Below are positions 29,611 to 62,063 of a stretch of DNA of 64,000 nt, piece after piece (the stretch's first letter is position 1; each line of letters opens with the position of its first letter). The position numbers were made by a program, and so were the translations under genes. Origin of the DNA: Buxus sempervirens (lineage: Eukaryota > Streptophyta > Magnoliopsida > Buxales > Buxaceae); NCBI GenBank assembly GCA_947561395.2, contig OX387185.1, positions 22,201,866 to 22,265,865 on the forward strand, read 5' to 3'. The notes under the pieces are model-generated. The model searched no databases, was not told the origin of the DNA, and worked only from the letters and a program-made list of their open reading frames with translations.

Positions 29611-32600
29611 CCAGGGCATGAGAAGCTGCTGGTTCGTTTTGGCATTTGTTAGAACCAATCTAGGAATTTCAGAGAGGAGTAGTGGAAGCTGGGATTGCTG
29701 GAGCAGATTTGGAGGTGTGGAGCAATCTGAGTTTTTGGTGCTGCTGAAGTTCTGTTCAAGAGAGAAAGTTGAGGAGGTCATTTCCGTAGTCATGGAATTC
29801 AACTAAATGCTGCAAATCTGGAGAGTTTAATCTGGAGTTCAAGTAAGGAAGGAGTTCAAATGATGCTCATATGGTTAATTTAACAAGCAAAGATTACATC
29901 GGAAGAGATCTGATCCAATTATGGAATATCCAGATCTCTGTTGGTCGTTCAGTTTTGGAGACAAAGAAATGGTCGAATGCAATTGAGGAATTGAGGAAAT
30001 TATTAGAGAATTCACCTGAGCATTTAAGTTAAGTAGCAGTTTTCCTCTTCTGATTTTCGTATGTTTGGATTTGAAGCATGGAATTGATACATAAAGTAAA
30101 TCTGTTTTGATCGAAGGATATGAGGTGTTGCTGTTTGTATAATGTGCTGAATGACTAGTTAAACCTAAAGTAGAGTAAAATTATAAAGTGGAGACTCATA
30201 ATTTTTCTGGAGGGAAATTGTAAGTAAAACCTTTGATTTGTGAAGAGTTGTATGTAGTAAAACTTGAATTGAACTTCAGATCTGCAGTGATAGTACGAGT
30301 GTATCATTAAAAATTTTACTTTAGATTTTACTTCAAAAAAATCAATGTCCAGAAACTCATAAACTGGATTTCCAAGTGAGTAGCACTCATCTTCTTGGAT
30401 TTACCAACGAAAAATCAATTTGAATTTGTATTTAAGTTGCTGCTCCTGAATGTTATGGTTGTGATCATCGATGAGAGAATTTCATATTTAAGCTGCATTC
30501 TAAGTTTTGAATTTTGGTATTGTAATTTGAGAAGCTTGATCAGGTTCATGTGTATATATATAGATGTATAAGTTATGACTGTTTTGCTGGAAACAATAGT
30601 TGAATGACTTGGTTGTTGGTTTTGTGTTTCAATGGTAAATCAAATATAAAGTAGAAACTTCTGAGTTGAGTTCTATGAGCTGAACTGAAAATCTGGTATG
30701 GCATGAGTGGGAATTACAGCCGATCCCCTGTTCTGGATTGTTAATTATCTAGACTGAAATGGCTTGAATCTCATGATATAATTATGTTTACTTACATGAT
30801 AAATGTTTCCTTATCTGTGTATTGGTCTGCTGTAGAGGAGTGTCCTTGTGGATGGATTAAGTTATAACTTGCTGTGGTAGTTACCTTGGTTACCGAAATT
30901 GAGAGGAAGAAACACAAGAATAACTTCAGCAATTGGTATTGAGTTTAGTGATACCATTAAATTTGAATGAGTGGTTAAAGTCAGGTTAGAGGGATAGGTG
31001 TGTATTGAAACTAGTTTGGTATACATATTCAGGTCAGTATTAGTCTTTCCACTCAGTCCTTTCTAGTCTAGTGCGGCTGTAGCACAGAAGAGAATATTGC
31101 TTGCTTTAAATTGAAGGATGGCTTAGGTTGGCGCTGGTTTCATAACTAAATAGAGGTCAGCACCTAGTCTTTTTCCACCTCAGCCAAGTGCGGCTGTTGC
31201 ACCAGATTTTGATTTACTAAATATCAAAACATTTTATCTATGGAGTGAACTAAAGAGTTGCATCAGGTTGTGGTGGTTAGAAGTTAAAGATTTACACAAT
31301 TAGTTTCTGAAGAATTTGATTGAACCATTGTTGGAATCAGCAACTCTATAGGTTGGCGCCCATGCACTCTTTCTTTGTCATGTGCAGCTAGCTACCTAAT
31401 GATAAATTCTGGAAATTGGTTAACTTCTAATTTTGTTTCAAGTAACATAAAAAGGGAATCATAGGTTCTGTACTAGCTCTAATCGCCTATAACCAAATGA
31501 ATGTAGAGAAGAGGATATTATGTAATGGAACTGAGTGTCAAATTTCTTTTTCTGATTTATATTTGCACTAAAGTTTTTCTACCAGGTGAATCAAGTATTT
31601 TGTGTTTAGACTTTCTGAACTATGAGTACAAACCAGATTTCAATTGAATTGTTCTTCTTCTTCAAGGAACTGGAGATGTTCGGACTAAATGTCAAATTAA
31701 GTGGAATGAATATGCTAGTTTTTTTTATCAAATCATGATTGCTGTTTTGAATTATCTCCGGCCCAAACATGCGTGATTGCTTGAACTCAGATTTGGGGTA
31801 TAATTCCTTATGCATTCTTTATTTGATAATATAAATGAAATTGAATGTGGGAAATGATATTTAAATAAAATATCTGAATGCTGAAACCCTCTCCCCGGCA
31901 TATAAATATTGCAAACTAAACCTGGAAAGTCACTTAAAAGATTGTCTATAGACAAATCAGTAAGTTAGAAGGGACCTCATGTTGCTAAGAACTATTAAAC
32001 TAGAGTGTCTAAGATTGTGGAGCATGGTTGAGTGGCACCCAACTCATGCTCATTGGTTGTGAATCAAAGTCTTAATTCTTACTGTTAGGAAATAAAAGAA
32101 GCTGAATTGAAGGTAATGGAAGTGTAAAAATCTGGAACTCGAGGAGAGTGGAAGTGTTTGGTGCTGTTATGTACGGCTGGTTATATATATATATAAGCTT
32201 AGGTTCAAGGGTATTAAAACCTACATTGGGTCTTCATTTGGAAATTATCTTCTTATTAAATTGGGGTTTTGAAGGTATGAAATAAATGCTGATTTGGAGC
32301 ATGCTGTGGTTCCAAGTAAGGTACTCAAATTCAGTTAGGTTATAACCTTGGGTTTCTTGATTGCTGAAATATTCTCAGCATTAGCAAGTGTATTTGTGAA
32401 ACTTAAAGAGATGGAGTTACCTACAGCACTAATGGGAAATGATGACAAGGGAGTGTAGTGAACTAAAGCTACTAAAGGGAAAACATATATGGAAAAGTAA
32501 ATTGCTGAAAACAGAATTCTTAAGAAGTGGTAAGTTTAGAGAAACCAAAAGTGTTAAAGAAGGAATTGGAAATGTAGGCCAAATAAGAGGGACATGAGTA

Positions 32601-33548
32601 TAAATTCTACTTGTCACTTACTGTTTAAGATGTAAGCAAACCCTATAAGACAGATTTAAGTAGCATAGTTGAATTTTGGTTTCAATACTCGAATTTGCCG
32701 GTTTAACCAAAATTGAGAAATTTTCATCAAAACTTTGACTATAAAAATAAATTCTATGCAATACTTTGAAAAAGAACTTTAAGTCAAGTTATTTTGGATA
32801 AATATGATTATTTGGTTTTCTCCATACACTTGAACGATCTTTTGGGATTCTTTGATGGATGGATGGTTACCTTACCTCCGTGTACTCGGGGATGCCCATG
32901 TACTTGGGGGTTGTTTCCTCTGTGTACTCAGAGATGGCTGTGTGCTCGTGATAGCATGTTTGGGTCTGGAACAAGTTGATATTATTAATATTTCTGTTTT
33001 TGGTTTTAGCTCGAGTCTAGATGGCATAGCTCGGTGTGGATCCAAATTTGTCAAGTTAAGAGCTAGGTAGTGGAATAGATTGTTTTCTTTGCTAGTCGTA
33101 ATGAGTTGTTCACGCACGCATTTCCACCATGTACTCGGTGAGGCTTGATCGTGTACTCAGCTGGCTACGGCTATCCCTCATTTTATCGTGTACTCGAACT
33201 GTGACTGGATTAGCACATGCCAACTCATCACTGTACTGGATGGGTTCTCCCGCAATAATACGATGATCGTGTACTCGGCTTCGCACCTAAGCCGGGAGGT
33301 GGCATAGTGGACTTGTTTTTATGATTTCACTTATGAATCGCTGTTATGCATTGATTGTTGAGATTGTTCTTTATCAGTATATATGTTGTATTTGGATTAC
33401 TCGGGTTACTCTTAAACGTTGGTTATCATTACTAATGCATTTTTACTATTGGAGCATGTTTTAGAACTGATATAAATGTTTTGTGCATGCATGTGCTACT
33501 TGCTGGGATATTCGTATCTCATTCCATTTTGATTTGTTTTGTTTTCAA

Positions 33549-33631
33549 ATCCTAGTGAGGACGATATACGTGGGGTTGAGCCAGACACGGATTACCCCAA
33601 GTATAGGGGAGAGGATTACTTTGTCGAGTGA
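33549..33631 (+). other. Terminal LTR micro-exon in A
   Basis: The frame reads NPSEDDIRGVEPDTDY, then a short linker, and ends GEDYFVE then stop, in the same phase as the other terminal exons. The acceptor position is CAA, not CAG. Confidence 0.45.
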
Positions 33632-34213: not shown

Positions 34214-36801
34214 CTGAAAACAAATCCGATAAAAAATGTGAGATAATAATATCTCAGCAAGTAGCCATGTAGAAAAGAAATATTTATACAGTTCTAAATA
34301 TGCAAACAAATAATCAGATTAATCCAACAATTCAAACCTCAAAAACAATCATTCACGATAAATCTTGCAGGACTCATGAAATAGAGAATAGAGAAACGAC
34401 AAGTTATGCCAATATGCTACCTAACCGGTTTTCAGGTGGACCAGCTGCTACCGGTCAGGTTATTCAACACCCAATGGAAGACTCAAGCGATACCGGAGTG
34501 AGTTAGCATGTACGGCCCAACCAATCCAGGAGTGGGTAACGTAGCAACTGACCAATCCAAAAATGATAGCATCCTCGAGATGATGGAATGCCTATGACCT
34601 AGAATCCAAACTCTAATAACATTTCACTTACTAGCGACTCTATGGATCCATGTACGAGCTAAGCCCACTCAACAGTGTCAAACCAAAAACAATCAATTTA
34701 GATACCGGAAACAACATTAGTAACCCACAAGACAACTCCAAGATACATAGAGGAAAACCAAGTTTCAAACTCAAGCTACATGAGTGAGAATAGCCACTCC
34801 GAGGTACACGAAGGAAAATAACAATAATTCTACCATTGAAATACTGAAAACATCTTTAGGTAGGTGAAATACAAGTGTACAAACCAATAAAATCAAATAA
34901 AGTTTAAAAGAAAAGGGTTTGGAACGATAAACTCAAATAAAAGCTATTTTTAGTAGAACGTACCCAAAATCTTCATAAAAATTCGATTTAATCAATTGCC
35001 ATGCACACAATCTATAAACACTCTAATCTTAGTAGTACATAAGTTGGAATTCAATAAAAACAATTTTATAATTAAAAACTAGACAATTTTCATAAACATA
35101 AATTTACTGTCAGGAGTGCTCGAGCGACATTGGGCACTCTTGCAAGCGCTCATACAAAATCAACATTCCCAGCTTCGGTGGCTCGGGATCGCGCTCAAGC
35201 GATCTCCCAGGCGCTCTGTTTACCAAATTTTGTCAACTCTCGAGTTTCCGAACTTAAAAAAAAAAACACAGGTCGGGCGCCTTGAGCGGCGACGAGTGTC
35301 CACTCTATACAACATGGCACCTGGGGTGACGCTCAAGCGTCATTGCAGGCGTCCGTTGTATTTCGTAAATTTCCGGAATTCGGAATTTTTTCAAACTTCA
35401 GATTTGTTTTTCCCGATTTTTAACACCTCGAATCACTTCCAAATCTTGGGTTCTTATCTTCAAAATACTCTAAACTATTCCAGTTGATCAAATACATCAA
35501 ACCACAAGTTTCCATAGCAAATCATTCACAAACAACTAGAAAATCTCTCGTTTAAACATGTTCGTCAATAAACCAAAGTATATCTGTTTTTGTAAGTTGT
35601 AAAGGGCTACTTACCTCTCTTCTTAGATCAAAACTTCTCCAAACACTTCTAGAAAACTCCTCTCTTGAAATCCCAATGGTCACAACAACTTCTCTTGAAC
35701 TAAATCATCATGTTCATGGCTTTTAGAAATTGTTCAAAAAACTTAGAACTGAACGTATGGATTACAATATATAGTTTGATCTTCATTTATCTTACCTGGA
35801 ATCCTCAAGAAATCATTTCTTCCTCTTCTCTTGATCTGAATAAATCCAAAGCCAAGGAAAATATAGTCTTCGGAGACTCACATATTGAAGAGAAGCTATG
35901 CAGTTGTTTCTCTCTCTCTCTCTCTCTCTTTTCTCCTTGAATGTGAATAGCAACTTCTAATTTATTTTATTTTTCTTTTTATATTTTCATCCAACACAAG
36001 TGTAACCCTAATAATCCTTCCTTAAATACTTCCTAAAATATCTCAAGTGTATTAATTCCCAATAACACCTAGTCGACTACTCTCCCTCCTTAGATTAGGG
36101 TTCGGCCAACTCTAAAATATAATTTTTTTCTCTTAGCTACGTATTAATTATTTAATACAAAATTCATAATAATAATTATATTAATAATAATAATCTTAAA
36201 ACTTAAATACAAACTGTAAGACCCTGAATTTTGTGAGTATTTATTTATTTATTTAGTTATTTATTCTGATGTATAAACTGTGTTATCAGGTTATTTTGTG
36301 GTTTGAGGGCTTAGCCCATACTCATATGTACAGGCGTTATATAGCCATTTTTCCGAAAAATCGTAGTATTATCATTGGTATTATTAAGGTGTAGTTATGT
36401 GGTTATTAACACGAATAGATGCTTAACATGTAGTATCTTCGGTGGGCGAGCATGCATAGGATCAAGGAAATGGGAGAGTATTCGAGCGAGTATGTAACAA
36501 GTAAGTGGACTAAAATGGAAAGTAGGGTTCGGGTTTATGAGAATGCGCTTAGCATAATTTCGGCAACATTTTCGTTAACTCTGGACATAAGGAGAATTGG
36601 CGATTTCGGCTGGAGGGCGACTAGGGCTTCCGTTCGTGAAGAACCATATATCGCAAGTGCTGGAAGAAGGAGTTCGGAGCTGAAGTTCCTTGGGTTATTT
36701 CCCTCTGCTCGAGAAGATTAGTTTCGATAGGTTTTTCATTCGCGCGCGTGGCCGAGAAGTGATCGGCCGGGGTTTTATCATTCGGGAATAAGCACACTCA
36801 G

Positions 36802-38374
36802 GTGAGTAGCACTGTTTTATAACTGGGTTTTGTGTTTTGTGTTTTCTCGAGCTTATTCTGATGCATGGTTTGTATATTAAGTGATAGTATGATGTTTTCT
36901 GGTTTTTCTGGTTTTTCGGAAAGTTACATGAACAGAGTCTCCGGATTGAAATTAAAATTGAAAATGAAAGTGTTTAGATTAATTTCAAATATGGTTGGGA
37001 AGTCTTCTGGGAGTATTAGGAGTGTACTGGAGTAGTTACAGACCTTCACAAACCGGCCAGTCATGTAGATCTCAAAATAACAGAGAAATGAAAACCACAG
37101 GGGGTATCCGCTCACCTCGCGCTCACCGGCGTTCACCTCGGAGGTAGGCGCCCCGTTAAAAATGACCTACCGCCGATCCCGCGCCCACCTCGCGCTCATC
37201 TCGCGCGAAGTAGAAAATAAGGCGCCCATCTCGCGCGAATCTCGCGCCCACCTCACGCCCATCTCGCGCTCATCTCGCGCTCACCTAGCGTCGGGTGAGC
37301 GGCAGGTCGATTTTGCCCGTTTTCTTCACCGCCGACCGGCGCTCACCTCGCGCCCACCTCGATAGGTGAGCGGCAGACCTATTTTGCTTACCGAAATGGA
37401 ATTTCTGATTTGACCAAGAGTATTTGCACTTCTTAGGGGCTAAACCACTTCACTATTCACTTGGTTAGGAACCTGGGAAACCATTTTGCCTATGAAATTA
37501 ATAGAGGAAAAATTTGTGAACCTCTTAAGAGTTTTTAAGTTGGGTTTAGGTTACTTATGAGTATTGTGCCGGACACCAAACTAGAAAGAGTTACCAGTTA
37601 CTTTTTCTTGTTCTATACACTGTTTTGATTGAGAAGTTCTTGTATTTCTGGTTTCACTTGTGGGAAACTTTATACGTATTGAAAGGTTTTCTTTGGTATG
37701 AATGGATTGAGTTTTACTTTCATATGACTTGTGTTACGGAAATGAGAAATTACTGAATGTACTTGAGGTACTGCTTGGTCCAGAGGGACAGGTGATGAAT
37801 TGTGATGAGTAATTACATGATGTGGAAATGAATGGTTTGTTTTGATATTGAAATCGAGATTATACGATGTTTACTGTTTTGGTCTAGCTTGTCCTGGATC
37901 CAGATGTTTAAGCTTAGTAATGTGATGTTATTGTTGGTTGTTGGAATTGCATGGCCTTGTGTGTTGCCACGACCGGTGTAGAGCAGCCAGAAACCCTGAG
38001 TAGGCCTGGTTGTCAATGCAGAAACCCGGGGAGTAGGCCTGCATTGGATGACGAAACCCTGAGTAGGCCGTCATTTCAGAGTATCCGAAACCCTGAGTAG
38101 GCCGGAACTGTGTACATGGAGGTGTGGAGTGTCTACTTGGCATGTTTAATTTATCAACCAAACGATAGTCATGACATTGACCAATCGATGTGTTATTGTA
38201 CTTAACTGAGATGTGATTTGTTTGATTTGAACTTGGGAAATTGATGTTGGCTGTTTAAACGTATTGTAGTGTTGTCGATGCATAGTTTTAAAATGTGATT
38301 CAACTATTTCTGCATGCATGTGCTACTCGCTGAGATATTCGTATCTCACTATGTTGTTGTTCTATTTTTTTCAG
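36802..38374 (+). other. Candidate intron inside solo LTR G
   Basis: A strong donor, CAG|GTGAGT, and a strong acceptor, polypyrimidine then TTCAG|A, bound 1573 bp. S2 has the same pair (61462 to 59882, minus, 1581 bp). The donor's GAGTAGCAC is the exact reverse complement of GTGCTACTC near the acceptor. Splicing is inferred. Confidence 0.5.
37984..38109 (+). repeat. Array of four hairpins with a common loop
   Basis: Loop AAACCCTGAGTAGGC (37991-38005, 38054-38068, 38088-38102; variant AAACCCGGGGAGTAGGC at 38022-38038) is closed by four different stems: CAGCCAG/CTGGTTG, CAATGCAG/CTGCATTG, ATGACG/CGTCAT and TCCG/CGGA. The same array occurs in S2 (about 60166-60294), where the fourth stem is a perfect AGTTCCG/CGGAACT. 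Confidence 0.75.
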
Positions 38375-38451
38375 ATACTCGTGGTGAGGCGATTACTGGG
38401 GTAGATCCTGCTGAGGCATATAGGGAGGAAGACTACAGTTACCTTCCTTAG
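38375..38451 (+). other. Terminal LTR micro-exon in G
   Basis: The frame DTRGEAITGVDPAEAY ends REEDYSYLP then stop, with the first codon split across the acceptor. S2 encodes the same peptide with two substitutions. In G and S2 the exon 1 sequence in this phase has a TAA 12 bases before the donor, so a start from exon 1 is unlikely. Confidence 0.5.
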
Positions 38452-38744
38452 ACTTGTAGGTTATCTGTTCCGAATTTGAGAACTTGAATTAATTGAGATG
38501 TATTAAAGTAATTGGGGATGAACCATATGATTTCAGTTCAGTTTAAATGTTACAATTTTGCATAAATGGAAATGTGCACTCTGTTAGGTTATAGATGTAT
38601 GATTATCCAGCGATCATAAATTGATTAACGATCCTTGCCTAACCTCCGTGAGACATGTTATATCTTTAATGAACAACACGGATCCGGAGCGTTACACAAA
38701 CTCACCTTATATTTAATTCTCAAAGTTCTCTGAGTCACTGTACA

Positions 38745-40320
38745 TGTAACGCCCCAGATCCAGGTTTATTTTAAAACATAAACCCAAACCTAATATGTTA
38801 GGATAATGGCCCAAAAAAACTATTTCAAACTTAAACAATTTCAATAAATATAATCAGAGTGCGGAAATAAAAGAATATTATCTTCATTGAAGTGCGGAAT
38901 ATAAAATTAAAAACATCCAATACCAAATCCATCAAAATAAGTCTAGATAGGTCAACTAAAAATAAATCATCATCCACCAATGACATCTACATAAAAGTAT
39001 TCTAAAACAGTCCCTCCAAATATTAAATCAATCAATGTATGCTCCCTAGACCTACACAGGAATAAAATAGTCGTCTTCTTGGTAGTCAATAAAATCCCCT
39101 GGAGTATCTACCCCTGCAGTGTCCTCACCAGGAATATCTAAAAACAAAACCGATAAAATAAATATGTGAGAAACAACACCTCAGTAAGTAGTCATGCAAA
39201 TAATTTGTAACAATAAAATATGCCACGATTAATCAGGCTAATCTCAGTAATACAGAACAACAATAATTAAATGAAAATAGAAATAACCACAAATCTTTCA
39301 ACCTCATGGGACTCATAAAATAGAAAACCAGAGAAAGAGAGTAGACATGTGCCAATATGCTACCTAACCAAATTACAGGTGGACTAGATGCAACTGCAGA
39401 CTAGCTATTAGACACCAACGGAAGAACCCAATCGGCAACCGAAATGAGTTAGCTGTACGGCCCAACCTATCCAGGAGTGGGTTAACGTAGCAATCGACCT
39501 ATCCAGGAGCGGTACCATCCTCGAGATGATGGAATGCCTATGACACAGAATTCAAACCCCTCAAGAAGACATTTCACTTACTAGCTAATCAATGGATCCA
39601 TGCAATTGCTAAGCCCACACAACGGTGGAAAACAAACCAAGTGATGGACATATCCCCCGATAACACCCGCATACGCGGAGACACAACTGTGTCAATAACA
39701 AACCCACAACTGCGGAATAACAAACCAAGCAACAGCCTTGGAACAATTGTAACCCAAAAACCCACACTAGTGAAGCCAAGTCATATGTCCAAACTCCAGG
39801 TTTCAACGGACAACTATGTCCCGGATGTGTATCGAATCCTTTGATGCACAAAATACACTCAAATAACCTAAATACAGGTGTAGGAACTCTTAAAATCAAG
39901 TTTTGTTTAAAAGGAAATTGTTTGGAACAATAGTACTAAGTTAAAAAGCCTCTTTGGTAAAATATACCCAAAATCTTTATAAAAATTAATTTTAAACATC
40001 CGCTAATGCAAACAATCTCTAAACACCCTGATCTTAATGATGCATAGGTTTAAATTGAATTAAAACAACTTCATGGTGGAAAACTAGGCTGGTTGGAAAA
40101 ATTCTGAAAATCTGACAAAGGGCGCTCGAGCGGCATCAGGCGCTCAAACGGGCAACAAAAAAATTTGGTGAATCCTGGTTGGTCGCTCAAGAGGTCGTTC
40201 GAGCGACACTTCGGGTGCTTGCCTTCTGAGTTTTGATCACTTTCGGGTTTTCTGAAAATTAAAAAGCATAGGCGGGGTGCCCTCGTTAGCACTTGAGCAC
40301 TAACGAGCGCCCACGAACTC
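38745..40320 (-). repeat. LTR fragment 'C' (reverse)
   Basis: It starts TGTAACGCCCCAGATCC on the + strand, directly after B, and follows the same plan as B but is clearly diverged: motif GACTACTTAC, a weakened hairpin (39166-39182), acceptor TTTTTAG (AG 39139-39138), terminal exon, and a GC-rich GCGCTC/GAGCGAC island (40120-40310). A perfect 8-bp stem CTCGTTAG/CTAACGAG lies at 40282-40307. The right boundary is approximate; no TSD was found. Confidence 0.6.
39052..39137 (-). other. Terminal LTR micro-exon in C
   Basis: Minus-strand frame DIPGEDTAGVDTPGDF, ending YQEEDDYFIPV-like (QEDDYFIPV) then stop. Same phase as in B. Confidence 0.5.
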
Positions 40321-41236: not shown

Positions 41237-43163
41237 CGTAATATCCCGAATTTTTAATAATATTAAATAGGATTTTAGGGATTATAAATTTATTTAATTG
41301 ATAGAAAATTTCAGAATTGGAGAAAAGAAATAAAACGGGGGATTTTATTGAACCAGATGAGAAAATTTTATTTAATTAGGTGGGGAATGTTGTTTAATTC
41401 TAATTGGTTGGTTTGGGGATGGTCAGATGATGTGGCTGATAGGGGATCATAGCCATTTAGCTTTGCTGGTGTAGGAAAATGTGTAGAAGGTCAAAGCATG
41501 GAATCATGCTTTAAACACTCTCCTGGCAGCAACTATAAAAGGAAGAAAATTTCAGTTGTTTGGTTATTTCGTTGGTTGCTCAAGAGACTTGAAATTTCAG
41601 AGAGATAAGCTAGGTTTTGAGGTGCAATTTGGAGGATTGCTGGTGATCAGAATAATCATATGGTGGCCAATCGATTGCTATTCAAAGATAGCTGAGAGCT
41701 CCTATTGTAGTAACTTAATTTCATTCAAGAGCAGAAACCTTAGTGATTTCAATCCAATTCCAGAAAAAAATTTCAAACGTTGATTTGAGTTGGAGTTGCT
41801 CTCACCTGCGGCAGCATTCTCAGGGCGTCAAGAACAAATCTCAGATTTGATCCTTTCTGATTCGATTGAAGCCTGGAATAGAGGAAGGCAGTGGCTGAGT
41901 TAGTTTTTATTTCTAGAAGTGTGCTTGATGATTTGACAAGGTTTAAGCTATGGATTGTCTTCCATCAGGTGAGTAGCACAAATCTGAGTTGATTGGAATG
42001 GTTTAAATTGAAATTTTAGTGTAGTTCAGATCAAAATTTTCTGCCACACTCTGTTTTTACAAAATCTGACGCATAAACCTACTCAGCAAACAATTTTGTT
42101 TCAATTAAATTTTAAGGCATGATTGTAGTTTGATGTGAAGAGTTTGAGTTCCTGGAGATAGTATAATGGAGAAAAATTCGAGCAGGTTGCATGTACAACT
42201 GAATCTATGCTTGTTTTACTGAAATATGGTCTGAAGGAATGTCTTGTGCAACTGATGATGTGTTAATGGTTTAGGTGACTAAATTAAATCCAAATGAGGT
42301 TAGTTATACTCTTTGAAGGGTCTAGATTATCCTAGAAGAGGTTTGAATGCAAGGCAGTAGATCAATCCTGATATTATTTTCATTAACAGCATTTAAATCT
42401 AGGAATATGGCCTGGGCGCTAAGCATTGATAACTGGCACTAACCTTTCCAGAGGTCAGCGACCAGTCAAATCCCAACCTATTCCTCTTAACTTTTAAAAG
42501 TGCTATTAAAATCCTAATTAGAGATTTATTTTAGGGACTTTAAATGATGGTAAACTTGAAGTATTTTGGATTGATCAAGAGGTCTAGGAAGCATTTTATA
42601 CTTGAGAGCTTGACTTGGCGTTGAGTGCTACCAACTCATTTCAACTTCTTTAAAGGTTCTGTTAAGTCCTACTTTGGAATTACTTTAGGGATTACTTAGG
42701 GATCTTAATTAAGGATAGATTAAAGCTCTTAGGAGAAACAAGGGGTGTTGAAATGGGATTCAGGAACAGTGTTGATGAGCAGTGCTGAGTGGTGCCTACC
42801 TCCCTAGAGGTTGGCGCCTAGCACACTACCAGCACCCTTGTCTTGGTTTTAAGTACCTTTGTGGGGGTTCATTTAGGAAGTTTAATTAGGGGTTATTAAA
42901 GGACTTTGGGGAAATAGGAGGCATTGGAAATAGTAGCAAATCTATGGTATCAAGTAAAGGAATCTGAAAACTGTTCTAGTTAGAGAATGGGGTATCCTTA
43001 GGGTGCTGAAATTTCTCCAGCACATGCACATTTAAAATGTGCATAACTAAATTGAGGAATCACTTGAAGGATTAATTAGAGATGATTAAATGGAGTTGGA
43101 GGACATAATGAGATATTGAATAATTGTATTAAAAGGGGGTTCTAAGCTAATGAGCATGGTGAA

Positions 43164-45553
43164 TGTAAAACCCCGAATTTTCCTTAAATAATATAATAAA
43201 TTAATAAATAATATCTTTGGGAATTTTTAATTGATGGAAATATTTTATTAATGTAGGGGACAATATAAATAGTAGAGATCCAGAGTTGGACGCAGATCCG
43301 ACCATCCGATCATGAGTTATCAAGGTATGATTCATATTTTAACTTTGTTGTCTTCTGATTGGGCAGTGTGCATAGGAAAACTTGTAAGTGAGCTACATGG
43401 GATCAGAGGGATATAAATACTTGTTTAATACCCTAATTGTATACGTTTGGAATACTTGCTCGTATTCAACAGCCGCAAGAGAGAAACCAAGAGAGCGACT
43501 GTGCGACCAAAAGAGAAGAAGAAGAAGGAGGAAGAAGGAAGGGCGTTTGGCTTGTGTTCTTCATCGTCTAGAGAGTGTCTTGCATCTGTGAGTACTGCTG
43601 TTTAGAGAAGGAAAAGGAGGACGCACGACAGAGGTAAGTGACACCGTTTTCTGTTCGTTTTTGTATTCTTGTTTGATTAATCTCTATTGCATGTTTTTAT
43701 ATGATATATTCATGTATTTAGTTAGATAACAATGTTATATGTATGTTAGAATAATCTTGGACATGAAAAATCAAGTTTTTAAACTGTTTCTGAACGTTTT
43801 TGAGTGACCGCCGACCTAACTGTACTCGGCGCTCCTCGGTCTCTTAGGCGCTAGTGCAAATTTTGAGACCACCTGAGACCACTAGACAACTTATCGTCGG
43901 CGACCTCAATTGAACTACCGCCTACCTTAGACCGCTGGGGCGATCCTAAGCGCTCTGTGCAGAAAATGCAGAATTTCGTATTTTCAAACCTTGATTCAAT
44001 TCCAAACTATTTTTAGTCAATTTTCATCATTAATTAAGATGTTTTAAGACCAAAATAATTTATCAAATTTCCTGTTTTACAGAAAAATAAATTAGGGAGA
44101 TATTTAGGACACTAGTTGCCAAACTTTGTATGAAACTGTGAAATCTAGTATTTGGAAAACTTGACCTATTATTTTATTACCAGAACATCTTTAAATTACA
44201 TTATAAATCAGATAATTACATAAAGAGAATTCACATCATAAGTTCAACTCAGTTAACCCGAATATTGAAAGAAATGTCAGATTTACTCTTATATGCCCCT
44301 AGGCACCAACCCTTATAGAATTATTATACTTTAGGGAATTTTTGGAGTCTAGTGGGCATAGCTGGTTATGGATCCATAGTTGTGGCTAGATAGCTAAGGG
44401 ATATTTTATTTGGGTTGAGTTTCTCCCTTATGCGAGCACGCTTCCATTGCAAGTTGGTTTGTTTGGGAAGGTCCTATGTCTGGAGGGACACCCCAGTGAG
44501 CCGCTTGTGATTCCCTGTACATGTGAATAAGTGACCATCTCCATGTATTGGTTCTGGTGCTACATGCTGGTGGTACATGCCAACTCTGATAGGTACGTAT
44601 GCAATAAGTCAGTGACTACGGCTCTTGTCTAAGCTACGCTGCATGGGGCTTGAGTATCATTAGTAGCACTGCTCCTAAGCCGCACGGTGGTACAGCGATT
44701 GGTCGAGAGTCATCTCAAAAGGTTTATCTATCTTTGTGAGTCCTACAATGACACTAAAATCACAAACACATGTTGTTACTGTTGCATACATGCTGGAGGC
44801 ATGTAATTGGTATATTGGTTGGATGTGACTGTTTAATGCATCCTAGTAACATATGGATTATGCTATTGATTCTGATATTGGATTCCTATAATAGAACATG
44901 CTGAAATTTATATTTAGAACTATTTATCATACTGTTTTGTATTCATGATCGATATGAATGGTTATACGAGCCTGCTTAGTCGAGATTGCTTAATCGTGCA
45001 TGAACTGTTATTTTACTTATATGAACTGTTTAAACATGCATGTGTTACCAACTGAGATATTCGTATCTCACCCTACCTTTATTTCATTTTTCAGCTGATA
45101 TGCGAGAGGGGGATCATAGTAGTGATTTCCAGGGAGAGCTAGCTGATTATTCGCCGGAGGAGTATTATTATCCGGATATTGTCTGAGGTTGTGGATTGAT
45201 ATAGATTTAGTTATTTTGATCAGATTATTATTCATTTTGGTTTGATGTATTAGAGAAATGAGAGATTAGTGACCCTTTTATTTTACCAGACTTTAATATT
45301 GATTTTGATGGTTAACTGTATTAGTTTCTTGAGGATTTTAGACTATACTTCTGCACATACATGTTCCGCACTCCGATAGTTAATTAATGAATGGATCATT
45401 TATTTCTTTAGTCTGGTATATTATTGATGATTAATTGATATGGGCCAGTAACATCTCGGATTTGGTTGATGACTTGAATTCAGGTTGTTACAGTAGCGAA
45501 CCGGGTTCGAGTTGGATGTTGGTTTTGCATTGACCCGGGTTTGGGGCGTTACA
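43164..45553 (+). mobile_element. Solo LTR 'D' nested in H
   Basis: TGTAAAACCCCG to TTTGGGGCGTTACA, 2390 bp, flanked by GTGAA at 43159-43163 and 45554-45558. Landmarks: TATA ATATAAATAC (43411-43420), donor AGAG|GTAAGTGACAC (43634-43644), GC-rich island (43805-43970), GTGTTAC (45042-45048), hairpin TGAGATA-TTCG-TATCTCA (45053-45070), acceptor TTTTTCAG (AG 45093-45094). The small ORF over 43388-43591 lies in exon 1 and has no recognised relatives. Confidence 0.92.
45095..45186 (+). other. Terminal LTR micro-exon in D
   Basis: The frame ADMREGDHSSDFQGEL ends EEYYYPDIV then stop, phase as in F. Closest to F (EDYYYPD). Confidence 0.5.
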
Positions 45554-46660
45554 GTGAATATTCAGATATGGCATAGGTTATTTAGGTGCATTGGGTTTGT
45601 GATTTAAGACTATATGAATGCCTTTCTAGGGTCCAGGTCGTAGCTGAGTTGCTGGGGATCATGATAGAGAATAAAAATGCAGAAAATAAAATTAACTTAA
45701 AAGTGTAAAGATGTGGAGTGAATATAATGAAATAATAAGTGCTAGGAGAAGTATTTAAGGGTTATTACTAGAATAATTGAACTAAAGATAATTCTTGTGG
45801 GAAAAACATACATTTTAAGGTTTTCAATGAGTAGAGTATATCTAGATTGATAATAGGAATTAATTCTGAGATTTTACACTCGAAGTTTCCGATTTAACCG
45901 AAATTCGTCAGTTTTCCTAAATTTAGAACTAAAAGGATATTACCTATAGGTTAAGCTACTGTTGGAGCCCAAAAAAGCGGTAGTTTAAGTCTGAGACTAA
46001 TATCAATATGTAACTCTGGTTTTAACATCCGAAATTGTCAGTTTAATTTAGAACATCACTTTTACTTAAATTTGACTTTTAAAAAGGGGATTTGTGGAAG
46101 TTAATGGAAGGAGCTGGTAAACTAAATATAATGGTTAATTTGAGTTATTTGATGGTGTGCTGAGCTTTTGGAAAACTGTAGATTTTGATACTAAATTGTT
46201 GGAGCAAGAGAATGTTTATTTTTAACAAATCAGAACAAAAGGGAATAAGAAGGGTATGGAGTAAATTAACAATTTTGAGATTTTACTATTTCAGACTAAA
46301 TAGTGTCTATAAATTTCTGCTCTTCTGAATATGGTTAACCTTGATTATAAGCACTGGGTTTCACCTCGGTTTAGACAAGATTGTCATGATTATGGAATTT
46401 TTTCACTAAACTGGTTTTATGCAGATTCTACGGAAAGAGTATTTTAAATTGAATATGGATGTTTGGTTTTCTAGTTTGGAATTGGTTTTCCTCTATGTAC
46501 TTGTAGAGACGGATTGAGATGCCCCATGTATCTCGAGATGTTGTTACCTCCGTGTATCTCGGGGATGCCCCGTGTAGCTCGGGATGATATGATTGAGATT
46601 GAGATGAGTTGTGCTTACTGGATTTCTTTGTTGGTTTTGGTTTTAGAGTCTAGTGGGCAT

Positions 46661-47552
46661 TAGGGGTGCAACTCGGTTCGGGTTGGTTCGGTTTGAACTC
46701 AAACCAAGACTGAACCGAAGCTATTAAACATTGGCCCAAAACCGAACCGAACCAAAATATAAACCGATCTTATTAAACCAAAAACCGAACCGATTATAAA
46801 TAAGAAACCCGAAATTCGAACCGAACCAAACCATTCGGTTCGGTTCTAAACAAATACTAAACCTTTTTATTATTTATTATATTATTAAAAAGTTTAATTT
46901 GGCCTTCAGTTGAACCGGTTCATGAGCTTGAACCGTTTCATCAATTTGATTTGAACCGTTTAAAGGGTTCAATGGAAGAAGACTTAGTTTAATGCATGAG
47001 AGAGGAGGGGTTGGCTTTATAGTAGTTGGCCAAGGAAGAAAACTTTCCCTGGCCGATGTGGGATTCAAGGGAATCCTTGAATGACCACGTGTGGGACTCA
47101 AGGGACGTGTGGGACTCAACTCACTCAAGGGAACTTTTTCCCTTGAGTCCCACATCGGCAGGGGAAAACCTTTCTTCCCTGGCCGACTAATATAAATTTG
47201 GGTTTAGAGTCCTTAGAGGCCATCAGGAGACTGCCATCATGAAAGAACCTTTTTTCACAAAGGTAACGACCACGTGTGTGGTCAAAGTTTTAATTAAATG
47301 AAAACTTTTTAATATATATATATTTATATTAATATATTTGTAAGTATATATATACTTTATAATATACATGTTTTATAGTGTCGGGTTTCGGTTCGTTAAA
47401 TTAGGCTTTAACCCAAACCGAACCGAACTAATTAGGTTTTAGTATATTTCAATCCAAAACCAAACCAAATGTTATAAAAACCGAACCAAACCGAACCGAA
47501 GTCGTTTGGGTCGGTTCGGGTTCGGTTTTAACCGGACCGAGTTGCACCCCTA
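46661..47552. mobile_element. hAT-type non-autonomous DNA transposon
   Basis: Terminal inverted repeats TAGGGGTGCAACTCGG and CCGAGTTGCACCCCTA with an exact 8-bp TSD GTGGGCAT (46653-46660, 47553-47560). TAGGGGTG-type ends and 8-bp TSDs are hAT features. Both subterminal regions are packed with GGTTCGG/CCGAACC words, likely transposase sites. There is no transposase ORF. The centre (46980-47200) has inverted copies of CCCTGGCCGA and GTGGGACTCAAGGGA. Confidence 0.93.
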
Positions 47553-48353
47553 GTGGGCATAGCTCGATATAGATCCATGTTAGGAGCTAGATAGTGGAAA
47601 GGATTGTTCTTTGCTAGTCGTAATACTTTATTCACGTATGCATTCCATCGTGTATCTCGATTAGACCTTCTCTGTATCTGGTTGGCTGCGGCTATCCCTC
47701 ATTTTATCGTGTATCTCGAACTATGACTGAATTAATACATGCCAACCCATTACTGTATCTGGATGGGTTCTCCCGCAATAAGACGATGATCGTGTAGCTC
47801 GGCTTCGCACATAAGCCGAGAGGCGGCATAGTGAGCATGGTCTTACACTAGTTAAAGGCAGTCTTATTTCATGAGTCCCACGGTGACTTATCGACTGCTG
47901 ATTTGATGATACAAATTTGTTGTTATACTGGATTATCCTTATTATCTCATACTGATCGATGATTTACTGATGGATTACTTCGATTATTCGAAACTGATAT
48001 GTTGTCGTTACTGTTGCATGATTTACAACTGTATCATATTTTAGGACTGTTAAACTATATTTGAGCATGCATGTGCTACTTACTAGGATATTCGTATCTC
48101 ATTACGGTTTGTTTTGGTTTGTTTTTCAGATTCTGGTAAGGACAACGCAACGGGTAGATGTTTGGTTATGTGAGTTAGCCTTGGTTTTGCTATTTTATAT
48201 TTAAGCTTGGGTTATAGTGCACTCTGATTATATAGTTATTGATTTATTCATGTTTTTCCTTCACTCTGATATTGTAATCCTGGGTTATATATTAACCTTC
48301 GGAGATAAGTTACGGTTTCTCTATGTAACTTGGATCCGGGGCATTAAGGGGCC

Positions 48354-53077: not shown

Positions 53078-53211
53078 AGTTTGATCATACCCCGGGGTCT
53101 CTAACTAATCGGTGCTCTCTGCGCTGGCTGCTAAAACTGTGGTCTCTGAGAAATCACTGGTGCTGGTGCAGTCGATGCATCAGGCTGCTAAGACCGACTA
53201 ACCACCAACGT

Positions 53212-54481: not shown

Positions 54482-54483
54482 AA

Positions 54484-54495
54484 TGGTATCTAGAT
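54484..54495 (+). other. Primer binding site, initiator-Met type
   Basis: TGGTATC begins two bases after the LTR end, as in tRNA-iMet-primed copia elements; the following bases diverge from the usual TGGTATCAGAGC. Confidence 0.75.
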
Positions 54496-54502
54496 CTATA
54501 GC

Positions 54503-55699: not shown

Positions 55700-58600
55700 T
55701 TGAAGGAATCAGAAACAGAGAAAAATAAAGCTCTTGCAGAAATAGATTCAATAAACCAGAAGTTATTTAAAAGACATGCCAAAGAAGATTCTCTGGTAAC
55801 TTCTTTAACTGAAAAAACTGAAAAACTAAAAGAAAAGGAAGCTCAGATTTCTGCACTTCAAGGTAAAGTGATTGAACTTGAGAAAGGTTCAAATTCAATT
55901 AAATCTAATGTTTCAAATTCTTCTACAGGAAATCATCAAATTAATGAGGAATCAATTTCAAAGGAAGTTCCTGAAAGCTCAAATTCTGCTGAAAAGAGAA
56001 TGAGTGTAAGTAATCAAAACAAGGAATCTTCACAGAAAATTTCTGCTGGAGAAGTAAGACCAACAGGTAAATCTCCAACTTCTGAGAAATCTAAATCTGT
56101 ACAATTTAGAAATGCTGGCAAGTCTAGAAATGGTGATTTTTCTGAACATAGGTTCATACCTGTATGCCATCACTGCAATAAAAAGGGTCATATAAGACCA
56201 AAGTGTTATGCACTGTATGGTTTCCCTGATGGATATTTTGACACTAAGAGAAAAGTGAATCAAAGTCAGTCCCTGGACTTGTACAATAGATTTGACTCCC
56301 TATTAAAATTGACTGAAACATTAAATCAGGAAGTCACAAATCTGTCAAAGAAGCTTCCTTCAAAAACTCAAGTAGTTGATGAAGGTACTTTTCAGAAGAC
56401 TCCTGAAAAACAGATTTGGGTAAGAAAAGATTCATTAGTTGCTAATGTGGTTCATGTAGCTTTAAAAGCTCATGATGTCAACATGTGGTACTTGGACAGT
56501 GGTGGTTCAAGACACATGTGTGGTCATAAGGCTATGTTCAGTACCTTTGAAGAATATTTTGGTGGAAGTGTTACATTTGGTGATGGAAGCACTTCCCAAG
56601 TTGAAGGTAAAGGAACTGTTACAGGTCCAAATGGAGTTTGCTTAAAGAATGTTCTATTTGTATCTGGTTTGAAAGCAAATCTTATCAGTATTAGCCAATT
56701 ATGTGATTCCAGATTATTTGTTAATTTTACCAGAAAAGAATGCAAAATATTGGATAAATCTGGTAGAACTGTTCTTGTAGGTGAAAGAACAAGTGATAAT
56801 TGCTATGGGATTATTGGAAACAATGAGTGTTCTTTAAAATCCTCCATAGGCAATGAAATTGATTTGTGGCATAGAAGACTTGGCCACATTAACTATAGAG
56901 ATTTGTCAAAAATCTCTAAGTCTGAGCTGGTTAGAGGAATTCCCAAGTTTGGGAAAAATAAAAAGAAAGGAATGTGTGGTCCTTGCAACCAAGGAAAGCA
57001 AATCAAAGCCACACACAAGAAAACCAACACTGTAGGAACATCAAGACCATTAGAACTGATTCATATGGATTTAATGGGACCTACAAAGACTGAAAGTCTG
57101 GGAGGAAAGAAATATATATTTGTTGCTGTAGATGACTACAGCAGATATACCTGGGTAGATTTTCTAAGAGAAAAATCTGAATGTTTCAACTGTTTTAAAC
57201 ATCTGTGCTGTCAAATTCAAGTTGAAAAGAATTTGCAAATAGGAAAGATTGTTAGAATTAGATCTGATCATGGGACAGAATTTGAGAATCAAATGTCTTC
57301 AAATTTCTGTGAAGAACAAGGAATCAAACATGAATTTTCTGCTCCTAAGACCCCACAACAAAATGGAGTTGTGGAAAGGAAGAACAGAGTGTTACAAGAA
57401 ATGGCTAGAACCATGATGATAGCCAAGAAAATTTCAACAAAATTCTGGGCTGAAGCTATAAACACTGCCTGTTACATTAGTAACAGAGTTTATATCAGAT
57501 CTGGGTGGAAACAAACTCCCTATGAACTTTGGAAAGGAAAACAGCCAAACTTGAAATATTTCAGAGTCTTTGGAAGTAAATGTTATATCTTAAGGGACAG
57601 AGAAAATCTAGGAAAATTTGATTCTAGAAGTGATGAAGGAATTTTTCTAGGATATTCTTCTTCTAGTAGAGCATACAGAGTTTTCAATTTGCAGAAATCA
57701 GTTGTAATGGAACCTATTAATGTGCTAATAGATGATGAAGGTAATGACAGTGAATTTTTGCAGGCTGTAGATGAAGAGGATGAACTCAGAGATGCATCCC
57801 CAAGCAATGAAGTTATTCCTCTGACTAGAACTCTCAAAGACCACCCAACTGAGCAAATTGTTGGAAAAATGTCAGATGGAGTAAGAACAAGACATCAACT
57901 ACAGAATGAGGTAAGATTTTCTTCCTACTTATCTCAATTTGAGCCAAAATCTTATAAAGATGCATTGTTGGATGATTCTTGGTTGAATGCTATGCATGAA
58001 GAACTGAATCAATTTACTAGAAATAATGTTTGGGAATTGGTTGAAAGACCCTCTGATCTAAATGTGATAGGAACCAAGTGGATTTTTAAGAACAAATCTG
58101 ATGAGAATGGGATAGTAACCAGAAATAAGGCTAGGCTTGTTGCTCAGGGGTATACTCAAGTAGAAGGAATAGATTTTGATGAAACCTTTGCTCCTGTAGC
58201 TAGGTTAGAATCAATCAGATTACTGTTGTCTATTGCATGTTACTTGAAGTTTAAACTGTCTCAAATGGATGTTAAGAGTGCATTCTTGAATGGATATCTG
58301 AATGAAGAGGTCTATGTAGAGCAACCTAAAGGATTTGAGGACACAAATCATCCTAAATATGTCTATAAACTGAACAAAGCCTTGTATGGACTCAAACAAG
58401 CTCCTAGAGCATGGTATGAGAGACTCACCTCTTTTTTACTTGAATCTGGTTTTATGAGAGGAAATGTGGATAAAACTTTCTTTATTCAAAGAGAATCCAA
58501 ACATATTTTGATTGCTCAAATCTATGTTGATGACATAGTGTTTGGGTCCACTTCTGAAAATCATGCTCACTCCTTTGCTGACTTAATGAAAAGTGAATTT

Positions 58601-59467
58601 TAAATGAGTATGATGGGTGAACTGAATTTTTTCTTAGGTCTTCAGATTTATCAATCTCAACAAGGAATTTTTTTCTCTCAAGCAAAATATTCAAGAAATC
58701 TTGTTAAGAGATTCAGCTTAACTCATGCCAAACATGCTAGGACTCCTATGAGTACTAGTTTAAAACTTGGAAAAGATGAATCTGGAAAAGTTGTAGACCC
58801 TACCCTGTACAGAGGAATGATTGGGAGTCTACTGTACTTAACAGCAAGTAGACCTGACATAAGCTTTAGTGTGGGAGTCTGTGCTAGATATCAGGCTAAT
58901 CCTAAAGAATCTCATTTGAATGCTGTAAAAAGGATTATAAAATATGTTAATGGAACTATTGATCTGGGAATCTGGTTTTCCAAAGAGACCAACCCACATC
59001 TTACTGGATACACTGATGCTGATTGGGCTGGGTGTATGGATGACAGAAAAAGCACCTCCGGTGGCTGCTTTTACATGGGGAATAATCTCATTGCCTGGTT
59101 AAGCAAGAAACAAAACTGTGTTTCTCTGAGTACTGCTGAAGCTGAGTATATTGCTGCAGGAAGCAGTTGTACTCAACTTATTTGGATGAAACAAATGTTA
59201 TCAGATTATGGGTTAGATCAAGATCAAATGATTCTCTTCTGTGATAATCAAAATGCCATAAATATCTCTAAGAATCCTGTTCAACACTCAAGGACCAAAC
59301 ATATAGATATCAGTCATCACTTTATAAGAGAGTTGATTGAAGACAAAACTGTTATGATTGAATATATATCTACTGAAAAACAGTTGGCTGACATTTTTAC
59401 TAAACCTTTAGATCAGAACAGATTTGAAACTCTTAGGAAATCCCTAGGAGTATGCTCTCAAAACTGA
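55700..59467 (+). pseudogene. Sirevirus-like pol
   Basis: One frame with a single TAA at 58601-58603. In order: coiled coil continuing from gag, a second knuckle [14 protein letters not shown], protease [13 protein letters not shown] (about residue 264), integrase zinc domain ([23 protein letters not shown]), core ([37 protein letters not shown]), RT ([43 protein letters not shown]), and after the stop RNase H (YTDADWAGCMDDRKSTSGG, STAEAEYIAA, FCDNQNAINIS). The catalytic residues I can see are all present. The pol ends at the same TGA as the left copy. Confidence 0.93.
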
Positions 59468-59556
59468 AAATCAGGTTCTGTTTTGAGTTAATTTTGATGT
59501 AAAATGTCTCACATATCTGTTCAAAATGAATTTGTGTGTTCTTATTACTAAGATCT
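59468..59556 (+). other. Sirevirus post-pol spacer, left of S2
   Basis: Collinear with 252-345 of the left copy up to the S2 insertion site. No gene. Confidence 0.8.
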
Positions 59557-62063
59557 TGTAACCCCCCGGATCCATGTTGTTCAATAAAGATATAACACGT
59601 CTCACGGAGGTTAGGCAAGGATCGTTAATCAATTTATGATCGTTGGATAATCATATAGCTATAACCTGACAGAGTGCACATTTCCATTTATGCAAAATTG
59701 TAACATTTAAACTGAACTAGAATCGTATGGTTCAACCCCAATTAAACTTTAATACATCTCAATTTATTCAAAGTTCTCAAATTCAGAACAGATAACCTAC
59801 TAGTCTAAGGAAGGTAATAGTAATCCTCCTCCCTATAAGCCTCAGCAGGATCTACCCCAGAAATCGCCTCACCACGAGTATCTGAAAAACAAACAAGACA
59901 AACAACGGAGTGAGATACGAATATCTCAGCGAGTAGCACATGCATGCAGAAATAGTTGATCACAATTTAAACTATGCATCGACAAACGCTGAATACGGTT
60001 AAACAATCAACATCAATTCTCAAATCGAAATTCAAGACTGGTTCTAATCAAACAAATCACATCTCAGTTAAGTACGGTAACACATCGATTGGTCAATGTC
60101 AGGACTATCGTTTAGTTGAAAAATTAAACATGCCAAGTAGACACTCCACACCTCCATGTACACAGTTCCGGCCTACTCAGGGTTTCGGAACTCTGAAATG
60201 ACGGCCTACTCAGGGTTTCGTCATCCAATGCAGGCCTACTCCCCGGGTTTCTGCATTGACAACCAGGCCTACTCAGGATTTCTGGCTGCTCTACACCGGT
60301 CGTGGCAACACACAAGGCCATGCAATTCCAACAACCAACAATAACATCACATTACTAAGCTTAAACATCTGGATCCAGGACAAGCTAGACCAAAACAGTA
60401 AAACATCGTATAATCTCAATTCCAATATCAAAATAAAACCATTCATTCCACATCATGTAAAACCCATCACAAGTCATCACCTGTCCCTCTGGACCAAGCA
60501 GTACCTCAAGTACTTTCAGTATTTTCTCATTTCCGTAACACAAGTCATATGAAAGTAAAACTCAATTCATTCATACCAAGGAAATCTTTACAATACATTT
60601 AAAGTTTCCAAACCAGTGAAACCAGAATAGAATAACTCCTCAATCAAAACAGTGTATAAAACAGAGGAAATGTAACTAGTAACTCTTAGTGGTTTGGTAT
60701 CCGGTATAACATTCATGAATAACCTAAACTCAACTTGAAAGCTTTTAAGAGGTTCACTAAATTTTCCTCTAATAGTTTCCTAGGCAAAATAGATTCCCAG
60801 GGTTCCCAAACAAGTGAATAGTGAAGTGGTTTAATCCTCAAGTAACCCAAATACCCTTAGTTAAATCAAATCTCCAATTCAGTAAGCAAAATAGGGTTTG
60901 CCGCTCACTTACTGAGGTGGGCGCGAGGTGAGTGCCGGTCGGCGGTGAAGAAATGGGGTAAAATCGACCTACCGCTCACTCGACGCTAGGTAAGCGTGAG
61001 CTGAGCGCGAGACGGGCGTGAGGTGGGCGCGAGATTCGCGCGAGATGAGCGCAAGGTTTTCTGCTGAGCGCGAGCTGAGCCCCAGCCGGGCGTGAGCTCG
61101 GCGGTGGGTCGTGTTTAACGGGGCGCCTACCTCTTAGGTGAGCGCCGGTGAGCGCGAGGTGGGCGGATACCCCCTGTGATTTTTGTTTCTCTGTTATTCC
61201 AAGATCTACAAGACTAGCCGGTTTGTTTACCTCTGTAATTGTTCTACTACACTCCTAATACTCCCAGAAGACTTCCCAACCATATTTGGATTTAATCTAA
61301 ATACATTTAATCTCAAGATAAATTTCGATCTCCGACTCTGTTTCGTGCCATTCCAGAAAACTAAAAGAAAACTCAAGACATCATTTAAACTACAACCATG
61401 CATCAGAATAATCTCGAGAAAACATAAAACACAAACCCCAGTTGTAAATCAGTGCTACTCACCTGAAATCGCTTATTCCAGAATACCAAAACCTCGGCCG
61501 ATCACCACTCCGGCCACGCACGCGAACACAGAAACTACCCAACCAATTCGTCTCGAACAGGGAGAAAGAACCCACTAAACTTCAACTCCGAAGCCCTTCT
61601 CTTACCCCTCGCGATACTTGTTCTTCACAAGCACAGAACCCTAGTCGCCACTCCAGCCGATTCTCCTGAGCTCCAAGTATCAGACTAACGAACAATGTTT
61701 CCGTAAGTATGATAGGCATATTCTCATAAACCCCAAAACCCTACTTACCCTTTTTAGTATATTTTACCTTGATACATACGCCGCTCGATCCTTCTCCCAT
61801 TTCCTTGATCCCATGCACGCTGGCCCACTGAAAACATCCTACATGTTCCGACCACTTAAGTTAACAAGTGCCCAAGCTATATATATATATATATTTAATA
61901 CAAATAATAATATAATTTTTCAGAAAAATGGCTATATAACGCCTGTACATACGAGTATGGGATAAGCCCTCAAACCACAAAATAACCTGATAAACACAGT
62001 TTATACATCAAAATAAATAACTAAATAAATAAATAAATAACTCACAAAAATCAGGGTCTTACA
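59557..62063 (-). mobile_element. Solo LTR 'S2' in the Sirevirus
   Basis: TGTAACCCCCCGG to GGGTCTTACA on the + strand, 2507 bp, flanked by GATCT at 59552-59556 and 62064-62068. The uninterrupted site is seen in the left copy near 345. It is the reverse-complement relative of G. In its sense: donor CAG|GTGAGTAGCAC (61462-61452), GC-rich GCGCGAG island (60900-61165), four-hairpin array (60294-60166), GTGCTACTC (59939-59931), hairpin 59928-59911, acceptor AG 59883-59882. No genes; an (AT)n run lies at 61878-61895. Confidence 0.95.
59805..59881 (-). other. Terminal LTR micro-exon in S2
   Basis: Minus-strand frame DTRGEAISGVDPAEAY, ending REEDYYYLP then stop; nearly identical to G. Confidence 0.5.

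What the first reader, a model, noticed from the sequence alone, without database searches (positions are those of the whole stretch)
30376..61462. Splice donor pairs with a motif near the acceptor in several LTR families, with compensatory changes
In each long LTR the donor motif is complementary to a motif 40-65 nt before the acceptor. A: GTGAGTAGCAC (30376) with GTGCTACT (33493). H: the same donor (41969) with GTGCTACT (48073). G and S2: GAGTAGCAC with GTGCTACTC, nine pairs. B: donor GTAAGTAGCCC (35614) with GGCTACTT (34266); both sides changed so that A-U became C-G. D: donor GTAAGTGACAC (43634) with GTGTTAC (45042); a G-C pair became A-U and one pair is G-U. Matching changes on both sides over 1.4 kb or more of intervening sequence argue for RNA pairing that joins or masks the splice sites.
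Basis: partly seen in the sequence, partly recalled or inferred. Interest (0 to 1): 0.9.

Follow-up and report, generated by a model that had tools for sequence, protein, structure and literature searches.

The report
RNA lock on retrotransposon splice donor
Many plant jumping genes of one group carry, in their end repeats, a short RNA helix that ties their own splice start site to a spot beside the matching splice end more than a thousand bases away, and it has been kept by matching changes on both sides, which suggests a switch between messenger RNA and genome RNA.

Summary
The host genome could be searched (676.5 Mb, unnamed plant), which turned six examples into a test. The acceptor-side module RCTGAGATATTCGTATCTCA has 4296 exact copies there, none for the reversed control. 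In 37 LTR copies, 36 with donors found by flank homology with the donor bases hidden, each of the nine informative pairs (donor +3..+11) forms in 35-37 copies; no shuffle of 20000 scores as high. On 22 distinct rows, 8 of these 9 pairs change on both sides (0 of 500 shuffles). G.U cells outnumber A.C cells 31 to 3, so the pairing is in the sense RNA. The full-length relatives read are Ty3/gypsy elements with Tekay-like features. The helix covers the U1 site of a leader segment holding 26-42 ATGs (4 LTRs). Best reading: a mask on the donor that keeps part of the transcripts unspliced as genomic RNA, the rest being spliced to Gag mRNA. The RNA helix is near certain. That splicing happens, and in which direction the helix acts, is inferred. 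The adjoining hairpin is conserved but shows little covariation.

The parts
36215..38696 (+). solo LTR G, 5-bp duplication CAAAC on both sides
36802..36812 (+). G donor GTGAGTAGCAC, exon end TCAG
38320..38330 (+). G motif GTGCTACTCGC, pairs with donor +11..+1
38332..38347 (+). G hairpin GAGATATTCGTATCTC; its 3' arm plus A is branch-point-like
38375..38451 (+). G exon 2, phase 1, short acidic tail TRGEAITGVDPAEAYREEDYSYLP and stop
59557..62063 (-). solo LTR S2, duplication GATCT (plus strand)
61452..61462 (-). S2 donor GTGAGTAGCAC
59929..59939 (-). S2 motif GTGCTACTCGC
59912..59927 (-). S2 hairpin
43164..45553 (+). solo LTR D, duplication GTGAA, nested in H
43634..43644 (+). D donor GTAAGTGACAC
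45042..45052 (+). D motif GTGTTACCAAC
45054..45069 (+). D hairpin
41237..48348 (+). solo LTR H (duplication GGGCC, ends mutated), holding D and a further insert near 46663-47550
41969..41979 (+). H donor GTGAGTAGCAC
48073..48083 (+). H motif GTGCTACTTAC
30376..30386 (+). A donor GTGAGTAGCAC (exon end CCAA)
33493..33503 (+). A motif GTGCTACTTGC; acceptor at 33546-33548 reads CAA
35604..35614 (-). B donor GTAAGTAGCCC
34257..34267 (-). B motif TGGCTACTTGC
34240..34255 (-). B hairpin with changed loop GAGATATTATTATCTC
39184..39193 (-). E: motif GACTACTTAC of a further, incomplete LTR copy; acceptor TTTAG at 39142-39138, tail read by eye after it; no donor of its own found with the pattern
5721..5731 (-). 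J: motif GTGCTGCTTAC of a further incomplete LTR, followed by hairpin, acceptor and (by eye) a tail ..AEDYYYPD
4721..4731 (-). I: donor GTAAGTAGCAC of an LTR whose acceptor side was not found downstream

Best explanation
These are the long LTRs of Ty3/gypsy retrotransposons with Tekay-like features. What I take as their R region (from TATA-like and poly(A)-like sites, not from mapped RNA ends) holds a short leader exon, a 5' splice site, a long intron segment, a motif, a hairpin with a branch-point-like sequence, a 3' splice site and a poly(A)-signal-like site. In the primary transcript the intron's first 11 bases pair with the motif 1.3-1.8 kb (in A about 3.1 kb) downstream, predicted next to the hairpin. 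SHOWN by comparison: the helix, at the RNA level, kept through compensatory changes. INFERRED: because it covers the whole intronic part of the U1 site, it works mainly as a mask that lowers donor use. A fraction of transcripts then stays unspliced, keeping primer-binding site and R as genomic RNA, while the rest is spliced from the leader donor to an acceptor just before the gag ATG, which would remove dozens of upstream ATGs and so let Gag be translated. In the 3' LTR copy the same mask could keep U1 away so that the poly(A) site works, as proposed for foamy viruses. The 3' LTR acceptor may also add a short acidic tail exon to Pol from a possible donor at the end of pol.
For: Helix. Double changes in rare motif classes: L063 GTACTACTC with GTGAGTAGTAC; L056/L057 with +6 C against motif G; L046 GTGTTGTCTAC with GTAGACAGCAC. 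L065, motif TTGATACTT, has GTAAGTATCAT; one search had noted the prediction GTAAGTATCAA before the fetch. It pairs at 10 of 11 positions, but ranked second in its stretch, was not called by homology, and L066 with the same motif showed no such donor. Mask: computed donor:motif duplex -19.2 kcal/mol on average over 26 copies, donor:U1 -10.8, donor with motif of another class -14.9 (U1 5' end recalled). 26-42 ATGs between donor and acceptor, none in the 150 nt before the donor in 3 of 4 LTRs. Acceptor-like sites right before gag in both elements read at their 5' end (L050, L076). Loose poly(A)-signal-like hexamers after exon 2 in 4 of 4. Branch-point-like UAUCUCAY: base after the A is a pyrimidine in 43 of 43 copies with a found AG, median 26 nt to it.
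Against: No transcript data. No spliced DNA copies (one hit each, both with the unspliced context). The helix could equally bring donor and acceptor together. Donor and motif are present in both LTRs, so 5' against 3' discrimination needs a further factor. Of 33 pair changes inferred on the tree, 27 end in a pair and 6 do not; both changes at +9 there break it. The number of further pair types is only weakly above shuffles (16 against 14.3, 33 of 500). Hairpin covariation is weak: with the first stem base changed, the two free bases of the 3' arm stay as TATCTCA in 91 of 100 listed copies. The tail is lost in some copies that keep the pairing (L036, L040, L045, L047), so tail and helix are not coupled.
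Confidence: 0.55

Rival explanations
1. Bridging: the helix loops out the 1.3-3 kb segment and brings the donor beside branch point and acceptor, raising splicing of this long intron.
For: The motif lies directly before the hairpin and branch-point-like site, 53-58 nt before exon 2; cofolding of five copies predicts helix and hairpin close together.
Against: The helix covers +1..+11, all intronic U1 contacts, and computes as stronger than donor:U1; a bridge would do better beside the donor than on it. The exon 1 to exon 2 product keeps 6-11 ATGs in the LTR (4 LTRs) and 2 more before gag (2 elements).
Confidence: 0.27
2. Packaging fold: the helix belongs to the fold of the unspliced genomic RNA recognised by Gag, with the palindrome-bearing CATGCAT box as dimer contact; donor masking marks unspliced RNA, as in HIV-1 (recalled; listing of papers only).
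For: CATGCAT within the 25 nt before the motif in 47 of 49 copies.
Against: The module is at the 3' end of a 1.3-1.8 kb segment, not near gag; CATGCAT may be a DNA site (RY element, recalled); window copy B lacks the box.
Confidence: 0.12
3. DNA-level or chance origin: complementary ends conserved as protein-binding sites, or leftovers of the donor consensus.
For: The donor consensus GTRAGT is conserved for its own reasons.
Against: Covariation reaches +7..+11, outside the consensus (22 distinct combinations: 97.5 of 110 points, 0 of 20000 shuffles); G.U 31 against A.C 3 without +1 and +2.
Confidence: 0.02

Closest known systems
[quoted passage not shown] abstract and passages seen)
   Same: Donor inside R, hence in both LTRs, before the poly(A) signal; an RNA fold thought to keep U1 off the donor in one LTR.
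   Different: There the R region is 193 nt and folds locally; here donor and partner are 1.3 kb or more apart, the partner sits at an acceptor, and the host is a plant.
SMN2 ISTL1: intron 7 donor paired with a deep intronic site (PMC3783185; passages seen)
   Same: Long-distance intronic helix covering part of the U1 site; shown there to inhibit donor use, more so when lengthened.
   Different: A single gene against thousands of module copies; here the partner lies next to a 3' splice site and the helix covaries over many families.
Spliced Gag mRNAs of plant Copia elements: EVD (PMC8892269, passages) and BARE (PMC3735527, abstract)
   Same: Unspliced RNA for Gag-Pol or genome against spliced RNA for Gag.
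   Different: Copia elements, with the intron downstream of the gag start (recalled); no long-range donor pairing in what I saw.
[quoted passage not shown]
   Same: Plant Ty3/gypsy element with partial splicing.
   Different: Other lineage, intron between coding parts, no such helix mentioned in the passage.

Membership tests
LTR retrotransposon LTR | TG..CA ends and target-site duplication | tested here: met
   G, D and S2 with TG..CA ends and exact 5-bp duplications; H has mutated ends; the ends of A and B were not both found
Ty3/gypsy | Order protease-RT-RNase H-integrase | tested here: met
   three L051 pieces: RVP_2 and RVT_1; RNase H, H2C2, rve; SH3_Tf2-1, in that order (rve 24.3 bits, below its cut-off 32.6)
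Tekay chromovirus | Chromodomain at the end of integrase | tested here: inconclusive
   No Pfam chromodomain hit in the L051 piece, but several homologues with 92-93% cover carry PF00385; the end reads like a chromodomain (recall)
Tekay chromovirus | Long LTRs (about 2.4-3 kb), element about 10 kb, 5-bp duplication | tested here: met
   G and D LTRs 2.48 and 2.39 kb with 5-bp duplications; the two modules of the L050/L051 element are 7.9 kb apart; Beta Tekay elements alike (PMC3605345, passages)
Tekay chromovirus | Placement in an RT tree with named Tekay elements | not tested
   no named reference set was used
Conserved RNA helix | Compensatory changes beyond shuffles and relatedness | tested here: met
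   8 double changes on single branches over 7 pairs in a tree of 29 copies
Spliceosomal intron | Spliced transcripts | not testable with these tools
   no RNA data; two answered junction searches found no spliced DNA copy
Splice-donor mask like SMN2 ISTL1 | Disrupting the helix raises donor use | not testable with these tools
   position and computed strength only

The most novel reading that the evidence does not exclude
A covariation-proven splicing lock (donor against motif, with the branch-point site in a neighbouring hairpin) decides in thousands of plant retrotransposon copies whether a transcript becomes Gag mRNA or genome, and because it lies in R it also separates the 5' from the 3' poly(A) site: one RNA switch for splicing, polyadenylation and genome choice.
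Probability: 0.3. Interest if true: 0.9.

Novelty: new variant of a known kind. Interest (0 to 1): 0.78.

Why it matters
How LTR retrotransposons share one transcript between translation and reverse transcription is an open question, and many plant genomes are full of such elements. A donor-masking helix with this much natural covariation gives a ready-made test: swap helix arms between families and read out splicing. It also marks functional RNA structure in LTRs, usually treated as fast-evolving non-coding DNA. In the listings of my searches and the passages read I saw no report of it; most subscription journals are not in that library.

Tried and rejected
Module patterns in viral contigs and genome contigs: 0 hits each. 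Rfam at gathering thresholds: 0 matches in the window. Exon 1 as coding partner of the tail: rejected, since the phase-1 frame stops 3-9 codons before the donor in 7 of 7 donors. Tail in public proteins: none of the 120 hits listed (of 7991) ends in it; only proteins of about 102-324 aa could be found that way. Spliced DNA copies: one hit each, both with unspliced context; the third junction pattern did not complete. Hairpin covariation: weak (the pattern left only two bases of the 3' arm free). A first automatic donor choice by 5' splice score alone picked some wrong sites (there the 18 distinct combinations gave 914 of 20000 shuffles as high for +7..+11) and was replaced by homology with the donor hidden.

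Rows dropped: 73 targets went into. Four calls (L015, L044, L062, L072) were moved by one base so that GT sits at +1. winD and winH found each other's donor because D lies inside H. The other 34 had no call or a non-GT call near the null score (L006, L021, L035, L066), often because the stretch held ended before or near the donor. Some kept scores are modest (lowest L037, 22 against a null of 18). The 16 query flanks were themselves taken from copies where a pairing donor had been seen, so the blind step hides the target's donor, not the choice of queries. The 20 stretches were chosen from the 100 listed places, mostly for rare motif classes; 12 of 20 showed a pairing donor, 8 did not (L058, L059, L060, L064, L066, L067, L074, L075). 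L013 and L014 look like 61-kb duplicates of L012 and were left out. All loci of the 37 outside the window come from one contig.
Full report
The window is plant DNA with nested retrotransposons. The stated donors and motifs are present. Read in the sense direction, six LTR copies share one order: leader without coding signs, donor, 1.35-6.1 kb (H includes nested inserts), CATGCAT box (not in B), motif, hairpin GAGATATTCGTATCTC or a variant, T-rich tract, CAG (CAA in A), and, in five of the six (not H), a short open tail ending in an acidic, tyrosine-rich stretch. G, D, S2 and H are solo LTRs with 5-bp duplications. The window also holds two further acceptor sides (E, J) and one further donor (I).

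The window's own genome was searchable. The hairpin 20-mer occurs 4296 times exactly, the reversed control never; 3854 copies have GCAT at the expected place before the motif. The patterns fix motif bases 10-12 (R, C, T) but leave the first nine free, so pairs +1 and +2 are set by construction and pairs +3..+11 are the test. Loci were taken in the order listed, nearly all on one contig.

To call donors without looking at pairing, the 11 donor bases were hidden and the flanks of 16 known donors were aligned to each upstream stretch. Of 73 targets, 36 blind calls plus winD gave the test set of 37; the rest had no usable call. In these 37, pairs +11 to +1 form in 37, 37, 35, 36, 36, 37, 37, 36, 35, 37 and 37 copies. 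Partner shuffles never reach the observed score, also when only 22 distinct combinations are used and when only +7..+11, outside the U1 consensus, is scored. On the 22 distinct rows, sliding the partner by 1-3 columns drops pairing (helix and hairpin together) from 98.1% to 22-58%; 8 pairs, all among +3..+11, show changes on both sides; 31 cells do, against 11.2 +- 3.2 shuffled (0 of 500). The count of further pair types is a weaker signal (16 against 14.3, 33 of 500). On a tree of 29 copies built from flanking sequence, eight double changes fall on single branches, over seven pairs; 27 of 33 inferred changes end in a pair, and the two at +9 do not.

The pairing is an RNA matter: G.U cells 54, A.C cells 3; without +1 and +2, 31 to 3. 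On the antisense strand the same G.U cells would be A.C. The helix computes at -19.2 kcal/mol on average, donor with U1 5' end -10.8, donor with another class's motif -14.9; native is better than its mean swap in 23 of 26 (U1 sequence recalled).

The hairpin is another matter. In 100 listed copies (of 103) whose first stem base is not G, the two bases of the 3' arm left free stay unchanged in 91 and restore a pair in 3. The 3' arm is thus held by something else; UAUCUCAY fits a branch point (recalled consensus), always followed by a pyrimidine (43 of 43) and a median 26 nt from the AG. I treat the hairpin as possible, not proven.

Which splice? The leader has no ATG in the 150 nt before the donor in G, D and S2 (3 in B), while the stretch to the acceptor holds 26-42. 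In the two elements read at their 5' end, an acceptor-like site lies at or 6 bp before the gag ATG, after what I take from recall as the primer-binding site (L050 TTTTGCAG/ATGG; L076 GCTTACAG/GTATACATGG). Splicing donor to gag acceptor would give a short leader without primer-binding site. The end of pol in L051 and L041 has AG/GTAAAT in the phase that would fit the tail exon (read by eye; the L041 copy has a stop codon just before it); this link is inference. Some copies lack the tail but keep the helix.

Mechanism. Shown: a conserved RNA helix on the donor. Inferred: it competes with U1 and so keeps part of the RNA unspliced. A laboratory precedent is SMN2 ISTL1, where lengthening such a helix increases skipping. 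The nearest arrangement is the foamy virus R region. Bridging remains the main rival.

Classification. L051 pieces match protease, RT, RNase H, integrase and Tf2-1 SH3 models; LTR length and 5-bp duplications fit the Tekay clade. A Pfam chromodomain was not found in the piece itself.

Noticed in passing
6122-8543 and 27140-29561: Pair of repeats 98.4% identical, 21 kb apart, flanking Ty3/gypsy RT and integrase ORFs on the minus strand and plant mobile domain ORFs on the plus strand: looks like a very long Tat/Ogre-type element (recall).
   Followed up: no
54494-59467: Copia element ORFs (RVT_2, integrase, Pol_BBD in the two ORFs scanned).
   Followed up: no
24205-24774: Tandem array of a 78-bp unit.
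   Followed up: no
exon 2 of A, B, D, G, S2 and (by eye) E, J: Short tail with a conserved acidic, tyrosine-rich end; in 22 genome copies of 24 codons (20 distinct) variable sites are 10, 9 and 15 at codon positions 1, 2 and 3. Its function and partner exon are open.
   Followed up: partly
the 25 nt before the motif, 49 genome copies: CATGCAT in 47 of 49 copies, an RY-type or palindromic box of unknown role.
   Followed up: no
winD, L051: Cofold also pairs the exon end and donor with the pyrimidine tract just after the hairpin; not tested for covariation.
   Followed up: no
L012, L013, L014: Same motif and tail three times at 61 kb spacing: probably a tandem segmental duplication.
   Followed up: no
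46663-47550: Insert in LTR H with inverted ends TTAGGGGTGCAAC / GTTGCACCCCTA, probably a DNA transposon (by eye).
   Followed up: no
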